From Elusimicrobiota bacterium (GTDB lineage Bacteria; CAYTYR01; UBA6262; DAOVJB01): a DNA stretch of 7,602 nucleotides. Made by a program: the position numbers and the translations under genes. This document shows, piece after piece, positions 3 through 7,601 of the stretch. The DNA is taken from assembly GCA_030673425.1 (NCBI GenBank), contig DAOVJB010000056.1, positions 1 through 7,602 on the forward strand, read 5' to 3'. Under the pieces are notes generated by a model. It did not search any database and was not told the origin of the DNA. It saw only the letters and a program-made list of their open reading frames with translations. Each line of letters starts with the position of its first letter. The stretch's first letter is position 1.

Positions 3-2657
3 TTGATAAATTTTACTGGATACAGGAAGGAGGAGTTAATAGGAAAAAAATTTACTGAGATAATTTCTCCTCCATATATGGGATTGGTCCAGTTAATATT
101 GAAAAAGACCCTGGATGGAAAAACTATTTCTAAAGGTGAGATGCAGATTGTAAAAGCCGATAAAACAGATTTATGGGTTGAGCTTTCAACCTCAGCGTTA
201 AGGGATCCCGAACAAAAGGTAATCGGGCAAGTCTGTGTCCTGCGTGATATCGGTTCCCGAAAGAGCAAAGAGGCAGAACTTAAGGGTTCAGAAAAATTCC
301 TTTCCCATTTAGTTGATAACGGAATTGATGCAGTTTATGTCTATGACAACAAAGGTAAAATTACCTTTTTCTCTAAAGGCGGAGAGAAACTGCTTGGTTG
401 GAGGTCAGAGGAAGTCGTTGGACAAAATTTTGAGTTACTCATTGCTCCTGAGGCCTTGAACAAACTTAAAGGGCAATTATCTTCCAGACGAACTGATGAA
501 CATAGAACATATCAGACCGTACTGGTGAGCAAAGGTGGTCGCCGGATTGATGTTGTTCAGAAGGTTATACCCGTATATAGGGACAAAGAAGTAATAGAAA
601 CCTGCAGTATAATTACTAACATTACTGCTCAGCAGAAGTTACAGGCAGAGCTTGCTGCTTTAAATGAGAAATTAAACGGATTAATTAGATTAGGAAAGAT
701 GATTTCTTCCAGGACCAACCTGGAAGAAATTTTGAATTTTATAGTAGGTTCTATAACTACATTTGCTAAAGTAGATATTGCTGTCCTGAGACTTCTCAAC
801 GACGACAAGACAGAATTAATTTTAAGAACTTGTTTTGGGGCTGACAAGACTCTGCTTCCTGAAACAATTGTATTAAAAGATGTGCTTACCAAGAAGGCTT
901 TAGATGAAGAAAGGGTCATATCCATCGGGGATATAACCGAGGAGATGGTTCTGTCTGCGGCTGAACGTGAGGTAGGGGAACCGGTGACTTCTATGTTAGC
1001 GGTTCCTTTAATTGCCCGCAAAGAAGGCAAGGGTATTCTTTACTTATACACCAGGGAATATTGCCAGTTTACCCGTCAGCAGATTGATTTAGCCTTTGCT
1101 TTTGTTAATCAGGCGGCAATAGCCATAGAGAGTGCTGTTTTGTATAGCAGGGAGCAGGAAACAATCACTAAATTACAGGACCTTGACCAGTCCAAGTCAG
1201 ATTTCCTTTCCATGGTTTCTCACGAGTTGCGCAGTCCTCTGACATCCATTAAAGGGTATACAGCTCTTATTCTGGGGGGGAGGGTAGGCGACATTAATGA
1301 AAAACAAAGAAAATTCCTGGAGATTGTGGCTAATCAAAGCAATCACTTAACTAAACTGATTGGTGACCTTTTAGATCTTTCACGTATTGAGTCAGGGAAA
1401 CTTATCCTGAAAAAGGATAGAGTCTCCTTAAACGTCGTTACCGAACTTGCCGCTGAAAGGTTCAGACTCCAGTTCGATACCAAAAAACTTAACTTTAGTA
1501 TAGATATCCCGGATACTTTACCTTTTATCTTAGGTGATGAAGAAAGACTGTTGCAGGTTTTCAGTAACTTAATGTCTAATGCTATTAAATTCACACCTGA
1601 AAAAGGAGACGTAACAATTAAAATGTGGAAGGATGCTGATAATATACAGATTCGCTGTATTGATACCGGCATAGGCATTACTCCTGAGGCAATGAAGAAG
1701 GTTTTCTCGGAATTTTATCAGGCAGACGGTACTGCTACAAGACAAATTGGAGGAGCTGGTTTGGGACTTGCTATAGTTCAAAAGATAATTGAAGCCCATA
1801 AAGGTAAAGTCTGGGTAGAGAGTGAAGGTATTGATAAAGGAACAACGATTTGCTTAACAATCCCAGCCATGACCGGTACTGATTCACTTCCGCCAGAAGT
1901 GAAGCCTGAAGTAAAGCCAGAGGTGAAGCCTGAAGTAAAGCCAGAGGTAAAGCCAGAAGTAAAACCTGAGGTAAAACCAGAGGTGAAGCCTGAAGTAAAA
2001 CCAGAGGTGAAGCCTGAAGTGAAACCAGAAGTGAAACCAGAGGTGAAGCCTGAAGTAAAACCAGAGGTAAAGCCTGAAGTGAAACCAGAAGTGAAACCAG
2101 AGGTGAAGCCTGAAGTAAAACCAGAGGTAAAACCAGAAGTGAAACCAGAGGTGAAGCCAGAAGTAAAACCTCAAGTAAAACCAGAGGTGAAACCAGAGGT
2201 GAAGCCAGAGGTAAAGCCAGAAGTAAAACCTGAAGTAAAACCAGAGGTGAAGCCAGAAGTAAAACCTGAGGTAAAACCTTTACCTGAAAAGAAAAAGACT
2301 GTTCTTGTTGTAGATGATGATAAAGAAGCACTGGAATTATTAAAGATTTATTTAACTGATGCAGGTTATAATATCATTGAGGCTTTAGGCGGCTATCAAG
2401 CAGTTGTGTTGGCCCAGAACCAAAAGCCTGATTTGATAAGTTTAGATGTTAAATTGCCTGATATAGACGGAATACAGGTACTTGAGTTGTTAAAGAAAAA
2501 TGACACAACTAAAAATATCCCAATAATGGTTGTCTCTATTGTAGAGGATATGCATGAGGAGATGTCGCGTCTTGGAGCAGCTGATTATTTAGTTAAACCT
2601 GTTGACAAAGATAAATTCCTGGCAACCGTAGATAAAATTTTAGGTATGAAAAAATAG
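3..2657 (+). CDS. Hybrid sensor histidine kinase, PAS-PAS-GAF-HisKA-HATPase-(EVKP)32-REC, 5'-truncated by window edge
   Basis: This is a signal-sensing autokinase with its own receiver. The first visible residues (NFTGYRKEELIG) are the middle of a PAS fold, so the true start lies upstream and the TTG at 3 is not a start. Visible numbering: partial PAS 1-83; second PAS about 96-207; short coiled coil 208-228; GAF about 228-380; HisKA with H-box SHELRSP and phospho-acceptor His407; HATPase with N-box Asn526, G1 box DTGIG (Asp554) and G2 box GGAGLG (583-588); EVKP repeat linker 632-759; receiver about 764-884. The receiver keeps the acidic residues Asp771-773, phospho-acceptor Asp815, Ser845 in the Thr/Ser position and Lys865, so it should be active. 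No membrane segment is seen in this part, suggesting cytoplasmic sensing, although missing N-terminal sequence could anchor it. The ligand cannot be deduced. The gene ends in TAG, 84 nt before the next gene. Confidence 0.95.
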   Translation: MINFTGYRKEELIGKKFTEIISPPYMGLVQLILKKTLDGKTISKGEMQIVKADKTDLWVELSTSALRDPEQKVIGQVCVLRDIGSRKSKEAELKGSEKFLSHLVDNGIDAVYVYDNKGKITFFSKGGEKLLGWRSEEVVGQNFELLIAPEALNKLKGQLSSRRTDEHRTYQTVLVSKGGRRIDVVQKVIPVYRDKEVIETCSIITNITAQQKLQAELAALNEKLNGLIRLGKMISSRTNLEEILNFIVGSITTFAKVDIAVLRLLNDDKTELILRTCFGADKTLLPETIVLKDVLTKKALDEERVISIGDITEEMVLSAAEREVGEPVTSMLAVPLIARKEGKGILYLYTREYCQFTRQQIDLAFAFVNQAAIAIESAVLYSREQETITKLQDLDQSKSDFLSMVSHELRSPLTSIKGYTALILGGRVGDINEKQRKFLEIVANQSNHLTKLIGDLLDLSRIESGKLILKKDRVSLNVVTELAAERFRLQFDTKKLNFSIDIPDTLPFILGDEERLLQVFSNLMSNAIKFTPEKGDVTIKMWKDADNIQIRCIDTGIGITPEAMKKVFSEFYQADGTATRQIGGAGLGLAIVQKIIEAHKGKVWVESEGIDKGTTICLTIPAMTGTDSLPPEVKPEVKPEVKPEVKPEVKPEVKPEVKPEVKPEVKPEVKPEVKPEVKPEVKPEVKPEVKPEVKPEVKPEVKPEVKPEVKPEVKPEVKPEVKPQVKPEVKPEVKPEVKPEVKPEVKPEVKPEVKPEVKPLPEKKKTVLVVDDDKEALELLKIYLTDAGYNIIEALGGYQAVVLAQNQKPDLISLDVKLPDIDGIQVLELLKKNDTTKNIPIMVVSIVEDMHEEMSRLGAADYLVKPVDKDKFLATVDKILGMKK
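1896..2279 (+). repeat. 12-bp in-frame tandem repeat, 32 units, encoding (EVKP)32
   Basis: Thirty-two contiguous 12-bp units of pattern GAR-GTR-AAR-CCW encode Glu-Val-Lys-Pro. Only one unit deviates at protein level: the 24th begins CAA and gives QVKP (2172-2174). Every other difference is a synonymous third-position change (GAA/GAG, GTA/GTG, AAA/AAG, CCA/CCT). The array is exactly 384 bp and lies between the HATPase and REC domains of the hybrid kinase. Proline at every fourth residue with balanced Glu and Lys predicts an extended, highly soluble, polyproline-II-like or disordered linker. The repeat also keeps other frames open, which explains long spurious reading frames on the minus strand. 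Confidence 0.97.
1981..2160 (+). repeat. 60-bp higher-order repeat inside the EVKP array, three copies
   Basis: Within the 12-bp array, 1981-2040 and 2041-2100 match at 59 of 60 positions (G at 2009, A at 2069). The next block, 2101-2160, matches the second copy at 56 of 60. The preceding block, 1921-1980, matches the first at about 53 of 60. The array therefore grew at least partly by duplication of five-unit blocks rather than single units, with the 1981-2100 pair the most recent event. Copy boundaries are arbitrary in phase. Confidence 0.85.
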
Positions 2658-2741: not shown

Positions 2742-3116
2742 ATGGCACAAAAGATTTTGGCTATTGATGATGAAACATTAATTTTGGATTTAGTCAAAAT
2801 TGCCTTGGAGACAGAAGGATATGAGGTAATTACGGCAGAACGGGGCTCCGTCGGCTTGGAAAAAGCCTTTGCTGAAAAAGTAGATTTAATTCTTTTGGAT
2901 TTTATGATGCCTGATATAAGCGGGTTTGAAGCCTGCAGGAGGCTTAAAACCAATCCGGCAACGAGCAATATTCCAATCGTGGTTCTAACAGCTAAGGTTT
3001 CCGATGATGACATAAAGAAAATAATGGAGACAGGAGCGATTGATTATATGACTAAACCCTTTGATCCTTTACAATTGGGTGACAAGGTTAAAGAAATACT
3101 TAAAAAACAGGGCTAG
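2742..3116 (+). CDS. Single-domain response regulator (CheY-like receiver), first of two
   Basis: The 124-residue product is a receiver domain and nothing else. It has acidic pocket residues Asp9 and Asp10, phospho-acceptor Asp53 in LLDFMMPD, Thr83 in VVLTAK and Lys105 in YMTKPFD, so every residue needed for phosphorylation is present. With no DNA-binding or enzymatic domain it should act by protein contact, as CheY, PilG/PilH and DivK do, or as a phosphate shuttle. The ATG is preceded by a purine-rich Shine-Dalgarno (GAGGGGGG, about 2728-2735). It lies 84 nt after the hybrid kinase gene and 18 nt before a second receiver gene, with pilB next. That context suggests that it links the kinase to pilus or secretion function; the partner itself is inferred. 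Confidence 0.95.
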   Translation: MAQKILAIDDETLILDLVKIALETEGYEVITAERGSVGLEKAFAEKVDLILLDFMMPDISGFEACRRLKTNPATSNIPIVVLTAKVSDDDIKKIMETGAIDYMTKPFDPLQLGDKVKEILKKQG

Positions 3117-3134: not shown

Positions 3135-3524
3135 GTGGCCGGTGAAAAAATACTTGTTGTAGATGATGATCCGTTTATAATCAACCTGGTTGTTTATAAC
3201 CTGGAACAGGAAGGGTACAAAGTGCTGCAGGCTACCAACGGTCTGGAAGCGCTGGAGAAGGCACGCAGGGAAAAGCCGGATCTTATAGTTTTAGATATTA
3301 TGCTCCCCAAAATGGACGGATATAAAGTATCGCGTATTCTTAAGTTTGACAAGAAGTATAAAGGTATTCCAGTACTAATGCTTACCGCAAAGGCCCAGGA
3401 AGTAGACAAGGAAACAGGGATGGAGACAGGAGCAGATATTTACATGACCAAGCCTTTTGAACCTGAGACGTTGATAAAAAAAGTCAGGGATCTTTTAGAT
3501 AGAACGAAAGGGGAAAAGAAATAA
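3135..3524 (+). CDS. Single-domain response regulator (CheY-like receiver), second of two, GTG start
   Basis: The 129-residue product is again a lone receiver: Asp10-Asp12 acidic cluster, phospho-acceptor Asp54 in IVLDIMLP, Thr84 in LMLTAK and Lys106 in YMTKPFE. The short tail after helix 5 (about DRTKGEKK) is basic. The GTG start is chosen because AAGGAG at 3121-3126 sits 8 nt upstream and the KILVVDDD strand begins at residue 5. By eye it shares only about two residues in five with the preceding receiver, so the pair is an old paralogue set or two separate recruitments, not a recent tandem duplication. Its TAA is only 6 nt before the pilB ATG and in the same frame, giving strong cotranscription and likely translational coupling. 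Role inferred: phosphorylation-dependent modulation of the adjacent pilus ATPase or its partners. Confidence 0.95.
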   Translation: MAGEKILVVDDDPFIINLVVYNLEQEGYKVLQATNGLEALEKARREKPDLIVLDIMLPKMDGYKVSRILKFDKKYKGIPVLMLTAKAQEVDKETGMETGADIYMTKPFEPETLIKKVRDLLDRTKGEKK

Positions 3525-3530
3525 TTTTCT

Positions 3531-5222
3531 ATGCCCAAACCAGAAAAGAAAAAATTAGGCGAGATGTTGAAAGAGGCGGGACTAGTCTCGGACGCACAGG
3601 TAAAAGAAGCCCTGAAGATACAGAAAGAAACAGGTGAACGCCTGGGTAGAATTCTGGTCAAACAGAATATTATTACAGAGGACAATCTGGTTACTCTATT
3701 GTCAGAGCAGCTGGGGATTCCCCGTGTAAATCTGAGTGATTATCTTATTGACCCCGAGATTATTAACCTGGTTTCTGAAGAGCTGGCAAGGCGGTATTAT
3801 TTAGTTCCTTTGTTTAAGGTTGGGGATGTGCTGACCGTGGCGATGAGCGATCCCTCTAATGTTTTTGCGCTTGATGAGGTCGGTTTCAAAGCGGAGTGTG
3901 CGGTTGAGCCGATACTGGCAACAGAGACTGAAATTAAACGCGTTATAGACCAGTACTATGGAGTAGTCGGTTCAATAGAGGATGTCATAAAAAGCATTGA
4001 TGCCAAGGGGCTGGGTTTAGATGATGCAAATATTGAGGCTGTGAGGCTCCAGGGTATCGCCGAGGAAGCCCCTGTAATAAAACTGGTTAATTTGATTATT
4101 ATGCAGGCTATAAGGGAAGGCGCAAGCGACATTCATATAGAGCCGGAAGAGGATATATTACGTACACGCTTTAGGATAGACGGTGTGTTAAGCGAAGCAG
4201 CTACAACGCCGAAGGACCTGCAATCAGCGATTGTTTCTAGGATAAAGATTATGTCTGAACTGGATATTGCTGAAAGAAGGATTCCGCAGGACGGACGCTT
4301 CCAGATTAAAGTGGAAAACAGAGATATTGACCTTCGTGTTTCTACATTTCCTACCGTACACGGGGAAAATGTAGTAATGCGAATTCTAGATACTTCAAGC
4401 GTATTATTTGGCATAGAGCAACTCGGTTTTTCAGCCGAGATGCTGAGACAGTTTGAGGAAATTATAAGAAAGCCATACGGGATAGTTCTGGTTACCGGGC
4501 CTACAGGGAGTGGGAAAACGACCACTCTTTATGCGTCTTTGAATACTATTAACACAATAGATAAAAATATTATTACTGTTGAGGATCCGGTAGAATACAG
4601 ACTTAAACTTATCCGCCAGTGCCAGATTAATCCCAAGGCAGGGCTTACCTTTGCCACAGGCTTAAGGTCAATTTTAAGGCAGGATCCTGATGTAATAATG
4701 GTCGGAGAAATCAGGGATTTAGAGACAGCTGAGATTGCCATCCAGTCTGCGTTGACAGGACATTTGGTGTTCAGCACACTTCATACCAATGATGCTGCTT
4801 CAACCGTGACAAGGTTAATGGATATGGGAGTGGAGCCTTTTCTGATTTCCTCCTCGTTAACAGGTGTGGTTGCCCAGAGGTTGGTCCGTACAATATGTGA
4901 TGATTGTAAAACCTCATACAAACCTCCTGCTAAAGCACTTAAGCAGCTGGGAATGGAAGAGACCCAAGATGTTACGTTTTATAAAGGTGAGGGCTGTAAG
5001 AAATGTCATAACAGCGGGTACAAAGGTCGGATAGGGCTTATTGAGCTACTCCATCTTAATGAAGCTCTCAGAGAACTAATTGTAGCTAAAGCATCGGCTG
5101 ATGCAATTAAAAAAACTGCTATAGAAGCCGGGATGAAGACCATGAGAGAGGATGGATTCAAAAAGGTTTTAAACGGGGTCACCACTATAGAGGAAGTTTT
5201 AAGGGTTACCCAGGAATTGTAA
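3531..5222 (+). CDS. pilB: PilB/GspE-type assembly ATPase with N-terminal MshEN domain
   Basis: This 563-residue cytoplasmic hexameric ATPase would power pilin polymerisation. The N-terminus is an MshEN domain: two 24-residue motifs at 8-31 and 37-60 separated by the canonical 5 residues. MshEN binds cyclic di-GMP in MshE and relatives. Deviations are Lys8 for Arg, Val24 for Leu and Asn46 for Gly. The ATPase core has the Asp-box region ASDIHIEP (198-205), Walker A GPTGSGKT (323-330, Lys329), Walker B around Asp387 with GEIRD Glu393, and His-box residues His411 and His418. A zinc-type tetracysteine follows: CxxC at 456/459 and CxxC at 489/492. The length fits PilB better than the usually shorter GspE, but GspE of a type II secretion system cannot be excluded. 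There is no close Shine-Dalgarno; AAAGGGG lies about 17 nt upstream inside the previous gene, suggesting coupling. PilC follows after 23 nt. Confidence 0.95.
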   Translation: MPKPEKKKLGEMLKEAGLVSDAQVKEALKIQKETGERLGRILVKQNIITEDNLVTLLSEQLGIPRVNLSDYLIDPEIINLVSEELARRYYLVPLFKVGDVLTVAMSDPSNVFALDEVGFKAECAVEPILATETEIKRVIDQYYGVVGSIEDVIKSIDAKGLGLDDANIEAVRLQGIAEEAPVIKLVNLIIMQAIREGASDIHIEPEEDILRTRFRIDGVLSEAATTPKDLQSAIVSRIKIMSELDIAERRIPQDGRFQIKVENRDIDLRVSTFPTVHGENVVMRILDTSSVLFGIEQLGFSAEMLRQFEEIIRKPYGIVLVTGPTGSGKTTTLYASLNTINTIDKNIITVEDPVEYRLKLIRQCQINPKAGLTFATGLRSILRQDPDVIMVGEIRDLETAEIAIQSALTGHLVFSTLHTNDAASTVTRLMDMGVEPFLISSSLTGVVAQRLVRTICDDCKTSYKPPAKALKQLGMEETQDVTFYKGEGCKKCHNSGYKGRIGLIELLHLNEALRELIVAKASADAIKKTAIEAGMKTMREDGFKKVLNGVTTIEEVLRVTQEL

Positions 5223-5245: not shown

Positions 5246-6463
5246 ATGCCGGTATTTGTTTATAGGGCGCGGGATAATACGGGCAAGCAGGTAAAAGGAC
5301 TTATGCAGGCTCATTCTGTAGGTGAGTTGAGTAAGAAACTGACCGATCTTGGTTATTTAATTACGGATATAACGGAGCAAAAAGGGCCTATTATTAACCT
5401 TAAAGGCTTTCAGGATAAATTTACAAGGATTAAAATAGATGACATCATAATGATAAATATCCAGTTAGCTAATATGATTGCTTCCGGACTGACGTTGCTC
5501 ACGAGCCTGAGGACTTTAATAAAACAGATTGAAAACAGATACTTAAAAAGAGTTATTGAGGATGTGCACAGAAGTGTTGAGATGGGAAGCACTTTTTCTG
5601 ATGCGGTAGCAAAGCATTCCAAGGTTTTCTCACCTTTATTTGTAAATATGATTCGTGCAGGAGAGGCAAGCGGTACGCTGGATGTTGTGTTAAACAGACT
5701 TGCGAAATTCGCCGAGGCCGACGCGGAATTAAGACAAAAGGTAAAAGCCGCTTTTATATATCCTATTATCCTGGTTGTAGTAGGGTCTATGGTGGTCATT
5801 TTCATGATAACCTTTGTTTTGCCAACTTTTGTAGAAATATTTACAAAGGCAGGCATACCACTGCCTTTGCCTACAAGGGTGCTACGTGCTATCAGTATTA
5901 TACTTAGGAAGTACTCATACCTGGTATTGGCTGTAGGATGCGGGTTAGCTTTTGCCTTTAAGAGTTATGTAAAAACCAGCATGGGCAAATTGCAGTTTGA
6001 CAGATTCATGTTAAAGATACCTGTAGTAGGACTCCTGATACGCAAAATTGCTATTGCCAGGTTCACCCGCACGCTGGCAACACTTATATCAAGCGGCGTT
6101 CCTATCCTGCAGGCGCTGGGGATAGTTGAGAAGGTTGTTGGGAACGAGGTCATCTCCCGGGTGATCAAGAGTGTTCACGACGGGGTGAGCAAGGGAGAAA
6201 AAATCGCACAGCCCTTGAAAATTAGCGAGGAATTTCCTGCTGATACCATTCAGATGATAGCCGTCGGAGAGGAAACAGGAAACCTGGACGGAATGTTAAA
6301 CAAAATATCAGATTTCTATGAGGTTTCTATTAATTACAGTATAAAGAGATTAACCGCATTACTTGAACCTGTTTTTTTGGTAATCATGGGTGCTGTAGTT
6401 GGTTTTATAGTCTCTTCATTGCTGTTGCCGATGTTTGACCTGATGAAGACAATTCAAAGGTAA
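5246..6463 (+). CDS. pilC: PilC/GspF-type inner-membrane platform protein
   Basis: The 405-residue protein is the polytopic platform that couples the ATPase to pilin extraction and filament growth. It opens with the family hallmark PVFVYRARDNTGKQVKG, then two T2SSF repeats, about 68-190 and 272-394. Each repeat carries the matching signature: IRAGEASGTLD (136-146) and IAVGEETGNLD (338-348). Hydrophobic segments are near 170-193, 223-240 and 372-396, as usual for the family. The length (about 400) is normal. GGAGG at 5237-5241 lies just before the ATG. It follows pilB by 23 nt, the standard pilB-pilC pairing, though no pilT retraction ATPase gene lies between them here. Whether it serves a pilus or type II secretion cannot be settled from this gene alone. 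Confidence 0.95.
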   Translation: MPVFVYRARDNTGKQVKGLMQAHSVGELSKKLTDLGYLITDITEQKGPIINLKGFQDKFTRIKIDDIIMINIQLANMIASGLTLLTSLRTLIKQIENRYLKRVIEDVHRSVEMGSTFSDAVAKHSKVFSPLFVNMIRAGEASGTLDVVLNRLAKFAEADAELRQKVKAAFIYPIILVVVGSMVVIFMITFVLPTFVEIFTKAGIPLPLPTRVLRAISIILRKYSYLVLAVGCGLAFAFKSYVKTSMGKLQFDRFMLKIPVVGLLIRKIAIARFTRTLATLISSGVPILQALGIVEKVVGNEVISRVIKSVHDGVSKGEKIAQPLKISEEFPADTIQMIAVGEETGNLDGMLNKISDFYEVSINYSIKRLTALLEPVFLVIMGAVVGFIVSSLLLPMFDLMKTIQR

Positions 6464-6611: not shown

Positions 6612-7067
6612 ATGCTAAAGAGGCAAAGAGGATTTACCTTAATAGAACTACTTATCGTTATGGCGGTAATCGCTATACTGATAGGGATAGCTCTTCCTAG
6701 ATTCAGGGGTATGCAGGATGAAAGTAATTTAGCCAGGGCAAGGTCAGAACTCCGGACATTACAGACAGCAATAGAGTCATTTTATATAAACTCAGACCCC
6801 AAGGCTTATCCTGATTTTGATAGTGGAAATACAGCATGGCAGGGTGCGCTTACAGGGGCAAGCCCTCAGATTATTTCATCAGTATTATATGATCCGTTCG
6901 GACTAACAACGACCACCCAGTATAGATATGATGCATCAGCTAACCTGCAGTATTATATTGCCTGGAGCAGAGGTGTAAACAGGGAAAACCATGTGCTATA
7001 TATAGGGAATACTGGGACTATCAGCGGAACCCAGGGCACCAAGATTTTTGTGAGTAACACACTGTAA
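6612..7067 (+). CDS. Type IV pilin / GspG-like major (pseudo)pilin
   Basis: The 151-residue prepilin has a short basic class III leader MLKRQRG, cleaved by prepilin peptidase before Phe8. The hydrophobic helix FTLIELLIVMAVIAILIG follows, with the conserved Glu at mature position 5 (Glu12) and the typical ALPRF end. A coiled-coil-like helix (ARARSELRTLQTAIESFYI) then leads to a globular head with DPFG (94-97) and a downstream Tyr-rich segment. This resembles the DPWG-Y region of GspG, the major type II pseudopilin. The mature protein has no cysteine and so lacks the disulfide-bounded D-region of classical type IVa pilins. The ATG at 6612 is chosen because an upstream in-frame GTG falls within the Shine-Dalgarno. 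It probably forms the body of the filament driven by the upstream PilB and PilC. Pilus versus secretion pseudopilus is undecided. Confidence 0.9.
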   Translation: MLKRQRGFTLIELLIVMAVIAILIGIALPRFRGMQDESNLARARSELRTLQTAIESFYINSDPKAYPDFDSGNTAWQGALTGASPQIISSVLYDPFGLTTTTQYRYDASANLQYYIAWSRGVNRENHVLYIGNTGTISGTQGTKIFVSNTL

Positions 7068-7157: not shown

Positions 7158-7601
7158 ATGCTTCTTAATATGAGAAAAGAAGCAGGCTTTACCATGGTAG
7201 AAATAATGTTGACCGTAGTGGTTTTAAGCCTCGGAGCCATGTTGTTGGCGAAGGGCTTAAGCACCGGTACAACAGCAGATATAGATACGGAAAATAGGGT
7301 TATTGCCTTAAACTTAGTAGTAGAAAAACTTGAGGAATTGAAGTACAGAGCAAGTTTAGATTTTAACCATTCAGAATTAAGTCCAGGGACTCATACGGAG
7401 AATCAGGTTGCCTTAGGTTTTGAAACTAATGACGAGAGAAACTGGGTAAGGGAATGGGTGGTAGGTAATTATCCGGGTTGCAGTATTAATGAATTAAAGG
7501 ATGTAAGAATTACGATTAGCTGGACACATAAGGGAGAAACCACACGATTAGATGTCGAAGCTGAAACCTTAATTGTTAATATTGCCTGGGCTGGAACTTA
7601 A
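7158..7601 (+). CDS. Minor type IV pilin / pseudopilin, PilV/GspI-like
   Basis: The 147-residue prepilin has leader MLLNMRKEAG, with predicted cleavage before Phe11. The N-methylation-type helix FTMVEIMLTVVVLSLGAMLL follows, with Glu at mature position 5 (Glu15). The next segment, ending ALNLVVEKLEELKYRA, matches the pattern common to PilV and GspI minor pilins. The C-terminal half has alternating beta-like stretches (DVRITISWTHKG, TTRLDVEAET) and a single cysteine. ATG 7158 is preferred because AAGGAG at 7142-7147 is 10 nt upstream; the next in-frame ATG at 7170 would be too far and would shorten the leader. Minor pilins of this kind usually prime filament assembly at the tip with further minor pilins encoded downstream, which the window does not show. 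The gene is complete, with its TAA one base before the window end. Confidence 0.85.
   Translation: MLLNMRKEAGFTMVEIMLTVVVLSLGAMLLAKGLSTGTTADIDTENRVIALNLVVEKLEELKYRASLDFNHSELSPGTHTENQVALGFETNDERNWVREWVVGNYPGCSINELKDVRITISWTHKGETTRLDVEAETLIVNIAWAGT

What the first reader, a model, noticed from the sequence alone, without database searches (positions are those of the whole stretch)
1896..2279. A 32-copy EVKP linker separates kinase core from receiver in a hybrid histidine kinase
The sequence shows 128 residues of near-perfect EVKP between HATPase and REC. Linkers there are normally short and degenerate. The composition recalls the proline-rich, charge-alternating spacer of TonB and, in name and chemistry, the PEVK segment of titin. 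If extended as polyproline II (about 0.31 nm per residue) it could span roughly 40 nm. It might act as a long tether that lets the receiver reach distant partners such as the pilus machine, as a spacer tuning intramolecular phosphotransfer, or as an elastic or mechanosensitive element. Those functions are inference.
Basis: partly seen in the sequence, partly recalled or inferred. Interest (0 to 1): 0.72.

Follow-up and report, generated by a model that had tools for sequence, protein, structure and literature searches.

The report
Long EVKP-repeat tether in hybrid kinase
A bacterial signalling kinase encoded next to pilus genes carries a real, in-frame, 32-copy Glu-Val-Lys-Pro repeat joining its catalytic core to its receiver domain, about six times longer than the joint in its relatives; it most likely acts as an unusually long flexible tether, with no evidence here of elasticity or force sensing.

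Summary
Window 1896-2279 encodes 32 in-frame units (31 EVKP, one QVKP) between an intact HATPase domain and an intact receiver (REC) domain. The linker is 144 aa. In four orthologues from the same class, in the same HK-RR-RR-pilB-pilC-pilin gene order, it is 24 aa and unrelated; in 17 other sampled hybrid kinases it is 4-29 aa. Among 84,980 species genomes, runs of four or more perfect EVKP units occur in only 63 stretches of DNA; none lies in a kinase or receiver protein, and the longest is 16 units (cut by the end of the stretch). Variation inside the array is almost wholly synonymous, with a 60-bp higher-order period. This points to growth by tandem duplication under amino-acid constraint. 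All 71-mers are unique, so a misassembled array is unlikely.

Best explanation: an ordinary hybrid histidine kinase whose joint expanded into a long, disordered, charge-balanced tether. It loosens receiver-kinase coupling while leaving phosphotransfer possible. Function was not tested. The 40 nm figure is a contour maximum; chain models give about 7-14 nm. Titin PEVK and TonB are analogies, not relatives. This is a new variant of a known kind, of moderate interest.

The parts
3..2657 (+). Hybrid histidine kinase gene (PAS-PAS-GAF-HisKA-HATPase_c-EVKP linker-REC); 5' end lies beyond the contig edge
1191..1397 (+). HisKA domain; phospho-accepting His (SHELR) codon at 1221-1223
   Evidence: His invariant in orthologues
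1533..1868 (+). HATPase_c domain with N, G1 and G2 boxes intact
1869..2300 (+). Whole HATPase-REC linker, 144 aa (24 aa in orthologues)
1896..2279 (+). 32 x 12-nt tandem array, 31 EVKP + 1 QVKP
2172..2183 (+). Unit 24, the only non-synonymous variant (QVKP)
2301..2630 (+). Receiver domain; phospho-acceptor Asp codon 2445-2447
2742..3116 (+). Stand-alone single-domain response regulator 1
3135..3524 (+). Stand-alone single-domain response regulator 2
3531..5222 (+). PilB/GspE-type ATPase (MshEN + T2SSE)
5246..6463 (+). PilC/GspF-type membrane protein (T2SSF x2)
6612..7067 (+). Type IV pilin-like protein (N-methylation motif)
7158..7601 (+). Second pilin-like protein (N-methylation motif)

Best explanation
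A hybrid histidine kinase, in a conserved pilus operon, whose short HATPase-REC joint was replaced or extended by a 12-nt tandem array. The array grew by in-frame duplication, largely in 60-bp steps, and its amino-acid sequence is constrained. The product is a long, disordered, charge-balanced tether (25% P, 25% E, 25% K) that keeps the receiver attached while lowering its effective concentration at the kinase core (about 16-24-fold against a 24-aa joint in an ideal-chain estimate), and lets it swing several nanometres. Shown: array, frame, intact catalytic residues, conserved synteny, short orthologue linkers, near-exclusively synonymous variation. Inferred: disorder, retained phosphotransfer, and any effect on receiver partner choice.
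For: Frame kept through 384 nt. HisKA His, N/G1/G2 boxes and REC Asp, Ser and Lys intact and invariant in 5 orthologues. Orthologues in identical gene order have 24-aa linkers. Pairs of units at lag 5 differ at 30 synonymous and 2 non-synonymous positions; 56 minority third-position cells against one non-synonymous cell; even at the minimum of 5 substitution events, P = 0.01 (p_nonsyn 0.78) to 0.04 (0.67), and about 4e-5 or less if the 12 non-founder unit types arose by separate events. Nine exactly identical unit pairs at lag 5 against a maximum of 8 over all lags in 5000 shuffles. AlphaFold gives no secondary structure and pLDDT about 30 over the array. EVKP runs recur independently between or beside domains of unrelated families, such as peptidase S41, RNase E/G, 5'-nucleotidase-LysM and CAP proteins, as expected of a generic spacer.
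Against: No direct evidence on conformation or activity. The AlphaFold model rests on 5 sequences and is poor over the kinase core as well, so its low confidence in the array is weak support. The orthologues carry short linkers, so the long tether is not needed for the system as a whole. Codons for Val and Pro use only two of four options, so part of the synonymous diversity may come from a few founder changes spread by duplication.
Confidence: 0.68

Rival explanations
1. Selectively neutral slippage by-product: tandem duplication lengthened a permissive linker, and neither length nor presence matters to the cell.
For: Orthologues with 24-aa linkers in the same operon; the array is confined to one genome among the 5 held for the class; tandem arrays grow readily.
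Against: Near-absence of non-synonymous change despite near-even two-state third positions shows constraint on the amino-acid sequence, though this may only be constraint on solubility and disorder, not on length.
Confidence: 0.2
2. Interaction or localisation platform: the repeated EVKP motif itself binds a partner, for example at the pilus machine or the pole, as the Pro-rich linker of Myxococcus RomR targets the cell pole.
For: Pilus operon context; the RomR linker alone localises to poles (PMC3441718); the amino-acid sequence is constrained.
Against: No partner known; EVKP runs elsewhere sit in unrelated, mostly exported-looking proteins; orthologues lack it although they keep the pilus operon.
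Confidence: 0.07
3. Elastic or mechanosensitive element, like titin PEVK or a TonB-type force transmitter.
For: Composition only: P, E, V, K; [quoted passage not shown]
Against: Lies in a kinase between catalytic core and receiver; no second anchor is seen on the receiver side; no TonB or TolA domain; 4-residue unit.
Confidence: 0.02
4. Assembly artefact: array or copy number produced by metagenome assembly.
For: Fragmented assembly (199 contigs); the contig starts inside this gene, with a 94% overlap to another contig; repeats are error-prone.
Against: Units carry 13 distinct sequences; longest exact repeat 62 nt; all 71-mers unique; frame kept; both flanks belong to one gene whose orthologues have the same domain order.
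Confidence: 0.03

Closest known systems
Hybrid histidine kinases (HisKA + HATPase_c + REC), e.g. BarA, ArcB, Caulobacter ShkA
   Same: Same domain order and catalytic residues; a c-di-GMP-responsive hybrid kinase (ShkA by my own knowledge) uses a long linker to let a receiver dock on or leave the core (as summarised in PMC10779265).
   Different: 144-aa near-perfect tetrapeptide-repeat linker directly after HATPase_c; 4-29 aa in the 21 kinases measured here.
Myxococcus xanthus FrzE (CheA-CheY fusion; from memory, not checked here)
   Same: A kinase joined to a receiver through a long proline-rich linker in a motility-control system.
   Different: CheA-type kinase; the linker is Ala/Pro-rich, not a tetrapeptide array.
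Myxococcus RomR
   Same: Receiver protein with a long Pro-rich disordered linker in motility control; linker length and composition vary by taxon (PMC3441718).
   Different: No kinase; the linker is itself a pole-targeting determinant; no EVKP array reported.
Titin PEVK segment
   Same: Rich in P, E, V and K; disordered entropic chain.
   Different: Giant muscle protein; other repeat units; load-bearing between anchors. No homology claimed.
TonB domain II
   Same: Pro-rich, charged, Pro-X1-4-Pro spacing expected to favour polyproline II (PMC12204202).
   Different: Periplasmic, between a membrane anchor and the TonB C-terminal domain.
Staphylococcal SD-repeat regions (ClfA)
   Same: Low-complexity tandem array as a flexible linker; in-frame rearrangement by recombination (PMC3324548).
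   Different: Surface adhesin; SD dipeptide; no signalling domains.

Membership tests
Hybrid histidine kinase | HisKA with phospho-accepting His | tested here: met
   PF00512 E 7e-20; H in SHELR, invariant in orthologues
Hybrid histidine kinase | HATPase_c with N, G1 and G2 boxes | tested here: met
   PF02518 E 3e-31; NLMSNA, DTGIGI, GGAGLGLA present
Hybrid histidine kinase | C-terminal REC with acceptor Asp, Ser/Thr and Lys | tested here: met
   PF00072 E 1e-22; residues invariant in the alignment
Hybrid histidine kinase | His-to-Asp phosphotransfer activity | not testable with these tools
   needs a biochemical assay
Titin PEVK (homology) | Titin repeat units in a muscle giant protein | tested here: not met
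   4-residue unit within a bacterial kinase; the solved-structure matches to the array are compositional and titin is not among those listed
TonB domain II (homology) | N-terminal membrane anchor and C-terminal TonB domain around the Pro-rich segment | tested here: not met
   flanked by HATPase_c and REC; no TonB domain in Pfam
Polyproline II / extended spacer | PPII or extended disordered conformation | tested here: inconclusive
   AlphaFold: no secondary structure, pLDDT about 30, but the alignment is shallow

The most novel reading that the evidence does not exclude
The repeat number is a heritable dial: gain or loss of 12- or 60-bp units changes the tether length, and so the balance between intramolecular transfer to the attached receiver and transfer to the two stand-alone regulators, tuning pilus control between strains.
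Probability: 0.1. Interest if true: 0.65.

Novelty: new variant of a known kind. Interest (0 to 1): 0.38.

Why it matters
Hybrid kinases usually have short joints that hold the receiver near the phosphorylated histidine. A natural pair of orthologous systems, one with a 24-aa and one with a 144-aa repeat joint in the same gene order, gives a clean test of how tether length governs intramolecular phosphotransfer and receiver partner choice. It also adds the longest EVKP array seen in this survey, and the only one in a kinase.

Tried and rejected
Solved-structure search with the array gave compositional matches only (circumsporozoite repeats, eL29, and the yeast Smt3 N-terminal tail of SUMO-tagged constructs). 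SD-like GAGGTG inside the array: 9 units against 6.8 +/- 1.4 in shuffles, not a convincing signal. Antisense ORFs across the array taken as by-products of a stop-free repeat. Joining contig C152 to the window's 5' end was not accepted: overlap only 94% identical, so it may be a strain variant, paralogue or duplicated PAS. Paper searches for proline-rich linkers in hybrid kinases found no direct precedent; the FrzE linker could not be checked in the held library. The organism's name was not obtained; only 5 genomes of its class are held. AlphaFold of HisKA-REC gave a usable fold for REC only.

Full report
What is there. The window is a whole 7602-bp contig of a 1.32 Mb, 199-contig assembly, 88% complete. 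Its first gene, ORF 3-2657, is open at the contig's 5' edge and encodes PAS-PAS-GAF-HisKA-HATPase_c-linker-REC. Nucleotides 1896-2279 are 32 tandem 12-nt units in that frame: 31 EVKP and one QVKP. The finding's coordinates and count are exact.

Is it an artefact? The units comprise 13 different sequences. The longest exact repeat in the region is 62 nt and every 71-mer is unique, so ordinary assembly could resolve it. Both flanks belong to one gene whose orthologues have the same domain order. The copy number still rests on one assembly without reads.

How it arose. Tandem Repeats Finder prefers a 60-bp period at 90%. Units five apart are 90% identical, with nine exact pairs; the best count over lags 1-12 in 5000 column shuffles never exceeded eight. 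This indicates duplication in blocks of five units. Variation sits at third positions: GAA/GAG 16/15, GTA/GTG 17/15, AAA/AAG 18/14, CCA/CCT 20/12; only one cell is non-synonymous. At lag 5 there are 30 synonymous and 2 non-synonymous differences for 85 synonymous and 299 non-synonymous sites. Counting only the minimum five substitutions, P for at most one being non-synonymous is 0.01 to 0.04; if the 12 non-founder unit types were separate events it is about 4e-5 or less. The amino-acid sequence is therefore constrained. That does not by itself show that the length is. Val and Pro use only two codons each, unlike the rest of the window, so the diversity probably comes from a limited founder set.

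Comparison. Four genomes of the same class carry the orthologue in a conserved neighbourhood; where the contig extends far enough the order is kinase, two single-domain regulators, pilB, pilC, pilin, as in the window (in L019 the first regulator was below the listing's length cut, and L017 ends at pilB). Their linkers are all 24 aa and unrelated in sequence. They also have a second REC domain that the window protein lacks, and an N-terminal hydrophobic segment. Seventeen other hybrid kinases from other lineages have 4-29 aa, and 72 contiguous HATPase-REC matches show at most 32 aa net insertion over a nearly linkerless query; a search for contiguous matches undersamples very long linkers. No other EVKP pair occurs in the own genome or the four relatives. 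Over 84,980 species genomes, 63 stretches hold at least four perfect EVKP units; the longest is 16 units, cut by the end of the stored stretch. None of those proteins matches the HATPase or REC profiles. The ten examined by Pfam include peptidase S41, RNase E/G, 5'-nucleotidase-LysM, CAP and HtaA proteins, and several arrays follow an N-terminal hydrophobic stretch. EVKP arrays thus look like a spacer type that has arisen many times; this one is the longest seen and the only one in a kinase. Records of the window's own genome may be left out of that scan, as the tool states.

How it probably works. Catalytic residues are intact and conserved, so the protein is probably an active hybrid kinase. 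The array has equal numbers of Glu and Lys, well mixed, with Pro at every fourth residue, which predicts a disordered, extended chain (general knowledge of polyampholytes). AlphaFold shows no secondary structure there, at pLDDT about 30, but on a shallow alignment that also leaves the kinase core poorly modelled. Worm-like-chain estimates with persistence lengths of 0.5-2.5 nm give an rms of about 7-14 nm for the array, with 40-46 nm only as contour, and an ideal-chain local concentration about 16-24 times lower for the 144-aa linker than for a 24-aa joint (titin PEVK has a persistence length near 1 nm, PMC12295887). The expected effect is looser coupling of the receiver to the histidine and a wider reach; competition with the two stand-alone regulators is then plausible. 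These functional steps are inference.

Rivals. Neutral expansion of a permissive joint is the main one. A binding or localisation role is possible by analogy with the RomR linker (PMC3441718). Elastic or force-sensing action has only compositional support. Titin PEVK and TonB are analogies; their defining features were not met.

Verdict. Real, unusual, and a useful natural experiment on tether length; a new variant of a known kind.

Noticed in passing
L016 (G000:C152) 291-8040: Six consecutive paralogous substrate-binding-like proteins of about 412 aa (five of them checked: SBP_bac_1/SBP_bac_8), starting without an evident signal peptide (e.g. MVTVNMWIWGAGAAAKQL), next to a PAS-domain ORF; possibly cytoplasmic binding proteins.
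   Followed up: partly
window 3-186 and L002 1-184: The window's start matches the end of contig C152 at 94%, not 100%: strain variant, paralogue or duplicated PAS domain.
   Followed up: partly
L017-L020: Orthologous kinases of the same class have a second C-terminal REC domain, absent from the window protein, and an N-terminal hydrophobic segment; the window protein's N-terminus is cut by the contig edge.
   Followed up: no
L083, L061, L080 (Obscuribacterales MAG JAIERK01): One genome holds several separate EVKP arrays, the longest at least 16 units and cut by the end of the stretch.
   Followed up: no
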